Shown: piece after piece, positions 2,012-17,723 of the stretch | Layout: every line of letters starts with the position of its first letter | Numbering within the stretch: position 1 is the stretch's first letter | NCBI GenBank assembly: GCA_018061825.1 | Contig: JAGOTK010000007.1 | Span: 1 to 32,693, forward strand | Direction of reading: 5' to 3' | DNA: 32,693 nucleotides | Source: Minisyncoccota bacterium | GTDB lineage: Bacteria > Patescibacteriota > Minisyncoccia > Phycocordibacterales > UBA5272 | Position numbers and translations under genes: made by a program | Notes under the pieces: model-generated | Told to the model about the DNA's origin: nothing | Databases searched by the model: none | Seen by the model: the letters and a program-made list of their open reading frames with translations, nothing else

Positions 2012-3835
2012 ATGAATAATATTTTTGCTAAAGTTTACATAGAAAAAGATCTAAATAATCTAAAACGCCTTATCACAAAAGACGCTGATTTGTACAAAGA
2101 AATTCTCGAAATAAGAGGAGAAATAGCAAAGACTCAAAAATTTTTGGGTGTAAAAACATTAGTTGGTAAAATTTTAAATATAGAAAAAAAGGCTCATGAA
2201 AAAGGGAAAACAAAAACTCCTACAAATAGTGAAGTTTTGATGTTATTTCAAAAAAGATTAGCAGAAGGAAAAGAAAATTTAGAAGAAGATAGAAAAAAAG
2301 AAATAGAGCAAATCTTAAAAAGATTAAAGGTGCGTAGTAGCTCTGGAGTGACAGTAGTATCTCTTCTTACAAAGCCATATCCTTGCCCTGGTAGATGTAT
2401 ATATTGTCCTACAGAGGTAAAAATGCCAAAGTCTTATTTATCCAAAGAGCCAGCAGCAGCTAGAGCTTTAGCAAACAACTTTGATCCATATAAGCAGATG
2501 ACTTCAAGATTAAAAGCTTTAGAAATGAACGGTCACCCAGTAAATAAATTAGAAATCATAGTGATAGGTGGTACTTTTGATTATTATAAAAAAGATTATC
2601 AAGAATATTTTTTAAAAGAAATTTTTAGAGCAGCAAATGAATTTAAGACTTCAGATTTAGAAATTAAAAATTCTAATTTATCTTTTTCCAGCTTGGGTCT
2701 CACAAGTAAAAAACTTTTAAAAGATAATTTAGAATCAAAGTCATTATTAGATCTTCAGACAGAAAATGAGACAGCAAATTGTAGAATAATAGGTATATCT
2801 ACAGAAACAAGACCAGATTATATAAATTTTGAGACATTAAATTGGCTTCGTCATTTGGGTGTGACAAAAATAGAAATAGGAGTTCAGCATCTAGATCAGC
2901 ATGTGCTTGATTTTAATGCTAGAGAGATGACAAAAGAAAGTATAGCAGAAGCGACAGAGATGATGCGTAGTGCAGGATTCAAATTTGTTTATCATATGAT
3001 GCCAAACCTCCCAGAATCAAATATTGAAATGGATGTTCAAATGTTTAAGGATTTATATAATTCAAAAGATTTTCATCCAGATATGCTAAAGATTTATCCT
3101 TGTGTGATATTAAAGACTAGTTATCTTTATAAAATGTTTACAAAAAAAGAATATAAAGACAGAGAGACAAAAGAGTTGAAAGGATTTGATTATCAGCCTT
3201 ATGATGATACGACTTTGATAAAAGTCCTTTCTGATAGTGAAAGGGAAATTAAAAATTACACAAGACTGATAAGAATGATTCGAGATATTCCTGCGACATA
3301 CATTTTAGCTTCTTCAAAGAAATCAAACATGCGTGAGTTGGTAGATGATTATCAAAAAAAGAATGGATTTATTCAGCAAGATATTCGTGCAAGAGAAATC
3401 AGGGATACAGAAGTAGATGATGCAGACTTTAATCTCAGAGTCACAGAATATGATACAAGACATGGAAGAGAGTACTTCTTGGAATATATAAATAAAAAAG
3501 AAAATGATAAGCTTGCAGGATTTGCTAGACTGCGTCTTCAAGATGATTTCTTTGATAAAGAGTTGAAGGGACAAGAAAATCTAAAAGTCCTTGCTGAAAA
3601 TGTTGCTCTTATTCGTGAGCTTCATGTGTATGGGATAGTTAAAAAATTTGGAGAAGCTGGAAATCAATCTCAACATGTTGGTTTTGGAAAAAGACTCATG
3701 GCAGAAGCAGAGAAAATAGCAAAAGAAAAAGGTTATAAAAAAATGGCTGTCATTTCTGGAGTTGGCGTGCGTGAATATTATAAAAAGCTTGGATATCATT
3801 TAGAGGGGACATATATGATAAAAGATCTTATTTAA
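2012..3835 (+). CDS. elp3: Elp3-family tRNA uridine-34 carboxymethyl/acetyltransferase-like enzyme
   Basis: A 607-residue protein with the Elp3 architecture: an N-terminal helical region, a radical-SAM core and a C-terminal GNAT acetyltransferase domain. The iron-sulfur motif is CPGRCIYC (Cys125, Cys129, Cys132, spacing CX3CX2C), followed by CPTE and the IVIGGTF strand. The C-terminal part has the RELHVYG signature and the acetyl-CoA loop QHVGFGKRL, then an EYYKKLGY end typical of the family. Elp3 uses SAM and acetyl-CoA to start cm5U formation at wobble U34 of tRNAs. In eukaryotes it works within Elongator, while archaeal and some bacterial forms act alone. No other Elongator subunit is seen here, so a stand-alone form is inferred. 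The leader is very short. Confidence 0.92.
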   Translation: MNNIFAKVYIEKDLNNLKRLITKDADLYKEILEIRGEIAKTQKFLGVKTLVGKILNIEKKAHEKGKTKTPTNSEVLMLFQKRLAEGKENLEEDRKKEIEQILKRLKVRSSSGVTVVSLLTKPYPCPGRCIYCPTEVKMPKSYLSKEPAAARALANNFDPYKQMTSRLKALEMNGHPVNKLEIIVIGGTFDYYKKDYQEYFLKEIFRAANEFKTSDLEIKNSNLSFSSLGLTSKKLLKDNLESKSLLDLQTENETANCRIIGISTETRPDYINFETLNWLRHLGVTKIEIGVQHLDQHVLDFNAREMTKESIAEATEMMRSAGFKFVYHMMPNLPESNIEMDVQMFKDLYNSKDFHPDMLKIYPCVILKTSYLYKMFTKKEYKDRETKELKGFDYQPYDDTTLIKVLSDSEREIKNYTRLIRMIRDIPATYILASSKKSNMRELVDDYQKKNGFIQQDIRAREIRDTEVDDADFNLRVTEYDTRHGREYFLEYINKKENDKLAGFARLRLQDDFFDKELKGQENLKVLAENVALIRELHVYGIVKKFGEAGNQSQHVGFGKRLMAEAEKIAKEKGYKKMAVISGVGVREYYKKLGYHLEGTYMIKDLI

Positions 3836-16453: not shown

Positions 16454-16545
16454 GGAGACGTGTCAGAGCGGTCTAACGTACCTCTTTGCTAAAGAGGCAG
16501 GGGTGTCAAAGCCCCTCGCGAGTTCGAATCTCGCCGTCTCCGCCA
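16454..16545 (+). tRNA. tRNA-Ser (GCT)
   Basis: A class II tRNA: acceptor GGAGACG/CGTCTCC, anticodon stem CCTCT/AGAGG with loop TTGCTAA, a long variable arm (AGGGG/CCCCT), T-arm GCGAG-TTCGAAT-CTCGC, discriminator G and encoded CCA. It reads AGC/AGT. Confidence 0.95.
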
Positions 16546-16560
16546 CGTTTTAAAATAAAA

Positions 16561-16650
16561 GGAGAATTGGATGAGTGGTTTAAATCAACGGTTTACTAAA
16601 CCGTCGAACTTGTAAAAGTTCCGTGAGTTCGAATCTCACATTCTCCGCCA
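16561..16650 (+). tRNA. tRNA-Ser with anticodon ACT
   Basis: A class II tRNA: acceptor GGAGAAT/ATTCTCC, anticodon stem ACGGT/ACCGT, loop TTACTAA (anticodon ACT), variable arm GAACTT/AAGTTC with a GTAA loop, T-arm GTGAG-TTCGAAT-CTCAC, discriminator G and encoded CCA. The fold is fully paired, so it does not look like a decaying gene. The long variable arm and G73 fit serine identity. An A at position 34 in a Ser tRNA reading AGT is very unusual, because the normal GCT tRNA already reads AGT and AGC. Confidence 0.9.
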
Positions 16651-16925: not shown

Positions 16926-17723
16926 ATGAAAAAAGTAATTTTCATTGTAGCTTTAATTTCTTTTTTATTTTCTTGCACAGAGCACAACATAAATAAAGAA
17001 GTTGGTAAAAAAAGAGATACCATCGGAATAGATATTTCAAGTTGTCAGGAAATTGTTAATTGGAATCAAGTAAAAACTGATCCTAATTATTTAATTTCTT
17101 TTGTCATTCTTCGTGCGACTATGGGAGATGATAGAAAAGATAAAAGATTTATATCTAATTTTAATGGAGCAAAAGAAGCTAAGATAAAAGTAGGTACTTA
17201 TCATTTCTTTGATTTAAAAGAAGACGGTAAAAAACAAGCTGATAATTATTTAAAAAGCATTTCTAAAATCAGCTCTGATTTTCCTCCTATAGTAGATATT
17301 GAAGTTTTTAAATATGTAAAGCATATAAAAATTATCAAGAAAACTATAATGATTGAAAAAAAGAATAAGAAAGGAATTGTTTTAAAGAATAAAAAAGGTA
17401 AAGTGATTTTTATCAAAAAGACTTTAAATCAAAAAGTTGAGTACATTACTCCATCTGCCGTTGAGATTAAAAAAGCAATAGGCGAGCTTTCTGTATTTTT
17501 AAATATTATAGAAAAAAGAACTGGTCGTAAACCTATGATTTACAGCAGTGCTTCATTTTTCGAACAATATTTAAGAGATTTTAAAGGATATCCTAAATGG
17601 GTATCAGCTTTAAATAAAAGTACAGACAAGATTGATGGAGACATTCATCAGTTTACTTTCTCTCTTTCTGTCAAAGGAATTAAAGGAAAAGTCGATGGGG
17701 ATCGATTTGTTCCAAAAAAATAA
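16926..17723 (+). CDS. GH25-family lysozyme lipoprotein
   Basis: A 265-residue protein. It has a lipoprotein signal peptide with lipobox LFSC (Cys17), then a glycoside hydrolase 25 barrel: TIGIDISSCQEIVNW at the start, FVILRATMG, VGTYHFFD, PPIVDIE with acidic residues Asp124 and Glu126, RKPMIYSS and the closing HQFTFS...VDGDRF. GH25 muramidases cleave the MurNAc-GlcNAc bond of peptidoglycan. A Lys-rich insertion follows the DIE motif (about residues 131-168), which is unusual. The signal peptide style and overall sequence resemble Bacteroidota homologs, so transfer is possible (inference). It lies next to the odd tRNA-Ser and GC-rich block. Its own wall or a neighbour cell's wall could be the target. 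Confidence 0.87.
   Translation: MKKVIFIVALISFLFSCTEHNINKEVGKKRDTIGIDISSCQEIVNWNQVKTDPNYLISFVILRATMGDDRKDKRFISNFNGAKEAKIKVGTYHFFDLKEDGKKQADNYLKSISKISSDFPPIVDIEVFKYVKHIKIIKKTIMIEKKNKKGIVLKNKKGKVIFIKKTLNQKVEYITPSAVEIKKAIGELSVFLNIIEKRTGRKPMIYSSASFFEQYLRDFKGYPKWVSALNKSTDKIDGDIHQFTFSLSVKGIKGKVDGDRFVPKK

What the first reader, a model, noticed from the sequence alone, without database searches (positions are those of the whole stretch)
16561..16650. Intact tRNA-Ser with anticodon ACT in tandem with normal tRNA-Ser(GCT)
The anticodon loop reads TTACTAA in a fully paired class II tRNA with G73 and CCA. A34 reading AGT is almost never used in bacteria, since GCT tRNAs read both AGT and AGC. Possible explanations are dedicated AGT decoding, a new TadA-type A-to-I substrate (the loop U33-A34-C35 matches the tRNA-Arg(ACG) target, but position 36 differs) or a non-translational role. 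The two tRNAs differ in all stems, so this is not a simple duplicate with a sequencing error.
Basis: partly seen in the sequence, partly recalled or inferred. Interest (0 to 1): 0.72.

Follow-up and report, generated by a model that had tools for sequence, protein, structure and literature searches.

The report
Conserved AGU-reading serine tRNA, unmodified A34
This tiny Patescibacterium really carries an extra serine tRNA whose anticodon (ACU) should read only the codon AGU, a kind of tRNA that is almost undocumented in bacteria but is conserved in many of its relatives and in phages, in a lineage with no detectable enzyme that could turn the unusual base into inosine.

Summary
The tRNA-Ser(ACT) at 16561-16650 (+) is real. 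ARAGORN and Rfam both call it, and it scores better than the adjacent tRNA-Ser(GCT). It is not an error: 22 other genomes of the same order carry a full-length homologue, all with anticodon ACT. A scan of 84,980 species gave 115 tRNA-Ser(ACT) loci among 118 matches, mostly Patescibacteria. In 109 distinct sequences nearly every stem pair is kept, with compensatory changes, so it is under selection as a folded tRNA. Its body resembles tRNA-Ser(UGA), not its GCT neighbour.

The inosine idea is not supported: this genome has no detectable TadA, 0 of 286 genomes of the class pass the TadA cut-off, and the Arg tRNA is GCG rather than ACG. Best explanation: a serine tRNA with unmodified A34 reading AGU, beside tRNA-Ser(GCU). 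AGU outnumbers AGC four to one here, and in E. coli a published ACU tRNA reads AGU but not AGC or AGA. Codon-usage support is suggestive but confounded by GC content. The gene is patchy (absent from two same-genus genomes), hence dispensable. The same tRNA is common in phage tRNA arrays. New variant of a known kind.

The parts
16561..16650 (+). tRNA-Ser with anticodon ACT (class II, CCA encoded)
   Evidence: ARAGORN; Rfam tRNA 55.9 bits; homologues with the same anticodon in 22 other genomes; covariation in 109 distinct sequences
16595..16597 (+). anticodon ACT (A34 C35 T36) in loop TTACTAA
   Evidence: direct sequence; ARAGORN anticodon position 35
16454..16545 (+). companion tRNA-Ser(GCT), able to read AGC and AGT by G-U wobble
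   Evidence: ARAGORN; Rfam 43.7 bits; a GCT gene lies near the ACT gene in 88 of 125 Patescibacteria loci, median gap 137 bases

Best explanation
It is a functional serine tRNA that keeps an unmodified adenosine at wobble position 34 and pairs Watson-Crick with AGU. It supplements tRNA-Ser(GCU), which reads AGC and, by G-U wobble, AGU. It is tolerated in the split AGN box (Ser AGY, Arg AGR) because these bacteria lack TadA and decode Arg CGY with tRNA-Arg(GCG), so nothing is known that would turn A34 into inosine, which would be expected to misread AGA. Shown here: the gene, its predicted fold, its conservation, no detectable TadA, the GCG Arg tRNA, AGT being the main AGY codon and still aligning to serine. 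Inferred: serylation, unmodified A34, AGU-restricted reading in vivo and a benefit tied to AGU-rich, AT-rich coding.
For: Gene and fold. Conserved ACT anticodon in 23 of 61 genomes. 115 of 118 genome contigs matches are tRNA-Ser(ACT). In 109 distinct sequences the acceptor, D, anticodon and T stems are paired in 98-100% of cases, most positions with compensatory pair types, and every variable arm has a 4-7 pair stem. TadA: no PF14437 match and no NF008113 match in this genome; 0 of 286 genomes of the class pass the NF008113 cut-off. tRNA-Arg is GCG in 30 of 30, as reported for the Candidate Phyla Radiation in PMC8629427. AGT 499 versus AGC 115 codons in 96 gene proxies. AGT codons align with Ser in relatives 51% of the time (AGC 45%, TCN 53-72%), so no reassignment. 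PMC11066159: an orthogonal ACU tRNA in E. coli reads AGU at 9.4%, AGC and AGA below detection, AGG 0.36%, with no inosine seen. Carriers are more AT-rich (GC3 0.30 versus 0.40, p=0.001) and shift AGY towards U relative to their own Phe/Tyr/His/Asn/Asp boxes (p=0.003; family means p=0.019).
Against: The codon shift is not significant once GC3 is a covariate (p=0.15) and not within the own family (p=0.21). In this genome AGY is less U-biased than the other boxes. G001 and G002 of the same genus lack the gene, so it is not needed to read AGU. No expression, charging or modification data were available. Eleven carriers from other phyla have TadA or a strong TadA-like protein (10 above cut-off), so absence of TadA is not a requirement.
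Confidence: 0.75

Rival explanations
1. A34 is deaminated to inosine by an unrecognised deaminase, so the tRNA reads AGU, AGC and possibly AGA.
For: The loop U33-A34-C35 matches the TadA target; some relatives carry deaminases of the same superfamily scoring 60-87 bits against the TadA model.
Against: No deaminase of PF14437 or NF008113 in this genome. The five deaminases of relatives that were scanned against NCBIfam score far below the TadA cut-off, two of them closest to ComEB or dCTP deaminase models. AGA codons align with Arg (82%) and almost never Ser (1.2%). E. coli TadA did not modify an ACU tRNA (PMC11066159).
Confidence: 0.05
2. The tRNA is selected mainly as a spare that escapes tRNA-cleaving toxins or defence nucleases (A34 instead of G34); it still decodes AGU. 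It was exchanged with phages.
For: Cultured jumbo phages (Salmonella Munch and 7t3, Klebsiella fENko-Kae01, Erwinia Hallingskeid) carry a tRNA-Ser(ACT). PMC10264068 reports phage tRNAs evading anticodon nucleases. Patchy distribution in the family.
Against: No nuclease that separates GCU from ACU tRNA-Ser is known to me; PMC10264068 names tRNA-Ser(gct) as not targeted. I saw no phage genes beside the tRNA in this window. Viral stretches are partial, so a GCT gene may lie elsewhere. The viral loci were selected by the ACT pattern.
Confidence: 0.12
3. The tRNA has a non-translational role (cell-wall aminoacyl donor, regulator or integration site).
For: Dispensable and patchy; a GH25 muramidase-like gene lies downstream.
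Against: All translation features are kept: G18G19, TTCGAAT T-loop, paired D and T stems, U33, A37, CCA. The recurrent neighbour is the GCT tRNA.
Confidence: 0.06
4. Sequencing or assembly error at base 34, or a decaying pseudogene.
For: None found.
Against: 22 independent genomes have the same anticodon and the stems covary.
Confidence: 0.01

Closest known systems
Bacterial tRNA-Ser(UGA) and tRNA-Ser(GCU)
   Same: Class II body, G73, long variable arm; the ACT body is closest to UGA bodies (mean best identity 0.85)
   Different: Anticodon ACU with A34; expected to read AGU only
tRNA-Thr(AGU) of Mycoplasma with unmodified A34 (as summarised in PMC11066159)
   Same: A natural A34 tRNA without inosine in a reduced genome
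   Different: That one serves a four-codon box and reads several codons; this one sits in a split Ser/Arg box and lies beside a G34 isoacceptor
Mollicutes without TadA (PMC3711424)
   Same: TadA not found, reduced genome
   Different: The Mollicute case concerns how tRNA-Arg reads CGN codons; here tRNA-Arg is GCG and the A34 tRNA is serine
tRNA-Leu(IAG) in Lactobacillales families (PMC13249217)
   Same: An additional A34-encoded tRNA in bacteria
   Different: Four-codon box with inosine formed
Phage-encoded tRNA-Ser(ACT)
   Same: Same anticodon and mostly the same loop
   Different: Carried by phages, usually in arrays without the GCT tRNA nearby

Membership tests
Functional class II tRNA-Ser | Cloverleaf with long paired variable arm | tested here: met
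   variable-arm stem of 6 pairs, 4-7 in all homologues
Functional class II tRNA-Ser | G73, GG in D-loop, TTCGAAT T-loop, CCA end | tested here: met
   direct sequence
Functional class II tRNA-Ser | Charged with serine by SerRS | not testable with these tools
   needs aminoacylation assay
TadA-dependent I34 tRNA | TadA-type deaminase in the genome | tested here: not met
   no PF14437 or NF008113 match in G000; genome is 93% complete, so a gap is possible, but 0 of 286 in the class pass the cut-off
TadA-dependent I34 tRNA | Anticodon ACG (Arg) as the usual bacterial target | tested here: not met
   anticodon ACU; tRNA-Arg of the genome is GCG
TadA-dependent I34 tRNA | Inosine at position 34 | not testable with these tools
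   needs tRNA sequencing
Natural unmodified-A34 tRNA (Mycoplasma Thr AGU type) | A34 encoded and no deaminase detectable | tested here: met
Natural unmodified-A34 tRNA (Mycoplasma Thr AGU type) | Serves a four-codon box | tested here: not met
   split AGN box; GCT, TCT and CCT tRNAs also present
Staphylococcal-type non-proteogenic tRNA | Loss of G18G19 in the D-loop | tested here: not met
   GG present in all 23 aligned sequences; the defining feature itself is from my own knowledge

The most novel reading that the evidence does not exclude
Patescibacteria and many phages share a dedicated AGU reader, tRNA-Ser with unmodified A34. It would be a natural, conserved case of A34 in a split codon box, letting AGU and AGC be served by separate tRNAs, and in phage arrays it stands in for the GCU tRNA.
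Probability: 0.45. Interest if true: 0.7.

Novelty: new variant of a known kind. Interest (0 to 1): 0.55.

Why it matters
[quoted passage not shown] A conserved A34 tRNA in a split box, in bacteria with no detectable TadA, gives natural material to test why A34 is avoided elsewhere: risk of inosine misreading, or poor decoding by A34 itself. The same tRNA in cultured jumbo phages, whose hosts are expected to have TadA, makes the question testable in laboratory strains. It also adds to evidence that Patescibacteria use a wobble strategy unlike typical bacteria.

Tried and rejected
TadA substrate: rejected on genome content. Sequencing error: rejected by 22 independent homologues. Duplicate of the GCT neighbour: rejected, the body is nearest UGA tRNAs. 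Codon reassignment of AGT: rejected. Codon usage as proof of AGU decoding: tried on 68 genomes; the signal is confounded with GC3 and left as suggestive. Literature searches for a described tRNA-Ser(ACU) in bacteria or phages found none in the held library, but key papers (Rafels-Ybern 2018, 2019) are not held, so absence of a report is not established. Similarity hits to named phages by the window tRNA were checked and the five opened were UGA, not ACT.

Full report
OBSERVATION. The window is contig C7 of a 537 kb, 17-contig, 93% complete genome. Relatives found with the same tRNA are named Nomurabacteria, Kaiserbacteria, Taylorbacteria and similar, so it is a Patescibacterium. ARAGORN reports tRNA-Ser(gct) 16454-16545 and tRNA-Ser(act) 16561-16650, both +. 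Rfam scores the ACT gene 55.9 bits and the GCT gene 43.7 bits. The loop is TTACTAA, the discriminator is G and CCA is encoded. The RNA folds better than all 200 shuffles. Among 37 anticodons seen in the held loci of this genome, ACT is the only one starting with A.

NOT AN ERROR. A search of 61 related genomes with the tRNA found full-length homologues in 23 including its own. Every one has anticodon ACT, loop TTACTAA, a class II body and G73. This set was found by similarity, not by the loop, so the identical anticodon is informative.

DISTRIBUTION. Most carriers are Patescibacteria: Nomura-, Kaiser-, Taylor-, Zambryski-, Lloyd-, Adler-, Yanofsky-, Magasanik-, Roizman-, Levy-, Ames- and Collierbacteria. 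In a sample of the class, 21 of 286 genomes match; five matched strings do not look like tRNAs, leaving 16: 11 of 23 in this order and 5 in one other family. In a sample of the phylum 25 of 381 match. These are lower bounds, since the pattern demands one anticodon stem. The gene is patchy: the two same-genus genomes G001 (95% complete, 6 contigs) and G002 have no full-length homologue, nor do G004, G008, G009, G012, G013 and G018 of the same family. Outside Patescibacteria it appears in Planctomycetota, Verrucomicrobia, Bacteroidota and a few others.

SELECTION ON THE FOLD. In 109 distinct Patescibacterial ACT sequences the acceptor, anticodon and T-stem pairs are standard in 98-100% of sequences, with up to four pair types per position. 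Corrected D-stem pairs are standard in 108 of 109, and every variable arm has a stem of 4-7 pairs. The D-stem rows used wrong columns; one search replaces them. The body is closest to tRNA-Ser(UGA) (0.83 for the window, 0.85 mean) rather than the neighbouring GCT (0.65 same-locus mean). A GCT gene lies in the same stretch in 88 of 125 loci, median gap 137 bases.

NO TADA. PF14437 has no match in this genome. NF008113 (TadA) has none either, and no genome among 286 of the class passes its cut-off. That cut-off is strict, since only 5 of 14 control genomes pass although 12 ring, so the fairer statement is that the best score in the class is 87 bits. By comparison, 10 of 11 carriers from other phyla score 154-212 bits and the eleventh 130.5, while seven Patescibacterial carriers score 68 bits or less. 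Five deaminases of relatives scanned with NCBIfam all fall far below the TadA cut-off, two of them closest to ComEB or dCTP deaminase. The usual TadA target is missing as well: tRNA-Arg is GCG in 30 of 30 genomes. That replacement is already reported for the Candidate Phyla Radiation (PMC8629427). The 11 non-Patescibacterial carriers show that TadA and tRNA-Ser(ACT) can coexist.

HOW IT PROBABLY WORKS. A34 pairs with U, so the tRNA should read AGU. In E. coli an orthogonal tRNA with anticodon ACU reads AGU at 9.4%, with AGC and AGA below detection, AGG 0.36% and no inosine (PMC11066159). Inosine would be expected to pair with A as well and misread the Arg codon AGA; with no TadA that risk is absent. 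In 96 gene proxies of this genome AGT makes 21% of serine codons and AGC 5% (499 versus 115). AGT codons align with serine in relatives like other serine codons and AGA with arginine, so the code is standard.

CODON USAGE TEST. Among 68 genomes of the order, carriers have lower GC3 (0.30 versus 0.40, p=0.001). Their AGY box is shifted to U relative to their own Phe, Tyr, His, Asn and Asp boxes (p=0.003; family means p=0.019). The effect is not significant with GC3 as covariate (p=0.15) or within the own family (p=0.21). I count this as suggestive only. Carrier labels outside rest on the exact pattern. The stronger test on ribosomal-protein genes could not be run.

PHAGES. Named cultured jumbo phages with an ACT anticodon are Erwinia Hallingskeid, Salmonella Munch and 7t3, and Klebsiella fENko-Kae01; the Munch loop reads CTACTAA. 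Their hosts are expected to have TadA (established knowledge of enterobacteria). Exchange between phages and Patescibacteria is possible but not shown.

VERDICT. Dedicated AGU decoding by unmodified A34 is the most likely function (0.75); serylation, the state of base 34 and in vivo decoding are inferred. No description of a bacterial tRNA-Ser(ACU) was found in the held library, with the caveat that the main surveys of A34 tRNAs are not held.

Noticed in passing
G000:C17:22227-22300 (L005): The genome has tRNA-Ile(UAU); only two distinct CAU tRNAs (apparently initiator and elongator Met) were seen, and the TilS family scores only 26.6 bits against a 93.6 cut-off. Ile AUA seems to be read without lysidine.
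   Followed up: partly
window 2012-3835 +: Elp3-like protein (radical SAM plus GNAT acetyltransferase domains), a candidate wobble-uridine modifier, in a genome without detectable TadA.
   Followed up: partly
window 16926-17723 +: GH25 muramidase-like protein with a lipoprotein-type signal, next to the tRNA pair; possible acquired gene.
   Followed up: no
L037, L256, L261 and others: Two distinct types of tRNA-Ser(GCT) body occur in this order (loops TTGCTAA and CTGCTAA).
   Followed up: no
L236 (JAFECS010000004.1): 8 kb stretch of a Proteobacteria MAG with about 50 tRNA genes including Val(AAC), Pro(AGG), Leu(AAG), Arg(ACG) and Ser(ACT); looks like a phage tRNA array.
   Followed up: no
L434 (IMGVR_UViG_3300028654_000213): A viral tRNA array in which ARAGORN calls a tRNA-Pyl(CTA) beside tRNA-Ser(ACT).
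   Followed up: no
L130, L183, L199, L207, L210, L227: Planctomycetota lineage with a nearly identical chromosomal tRNA-Ser(ACT) and conserved neighbourhoods; L183 is labelled Chitinophaga but is syntenic with the Planctomycetota contigs, so probably mislabelled.
   Followed up: partly
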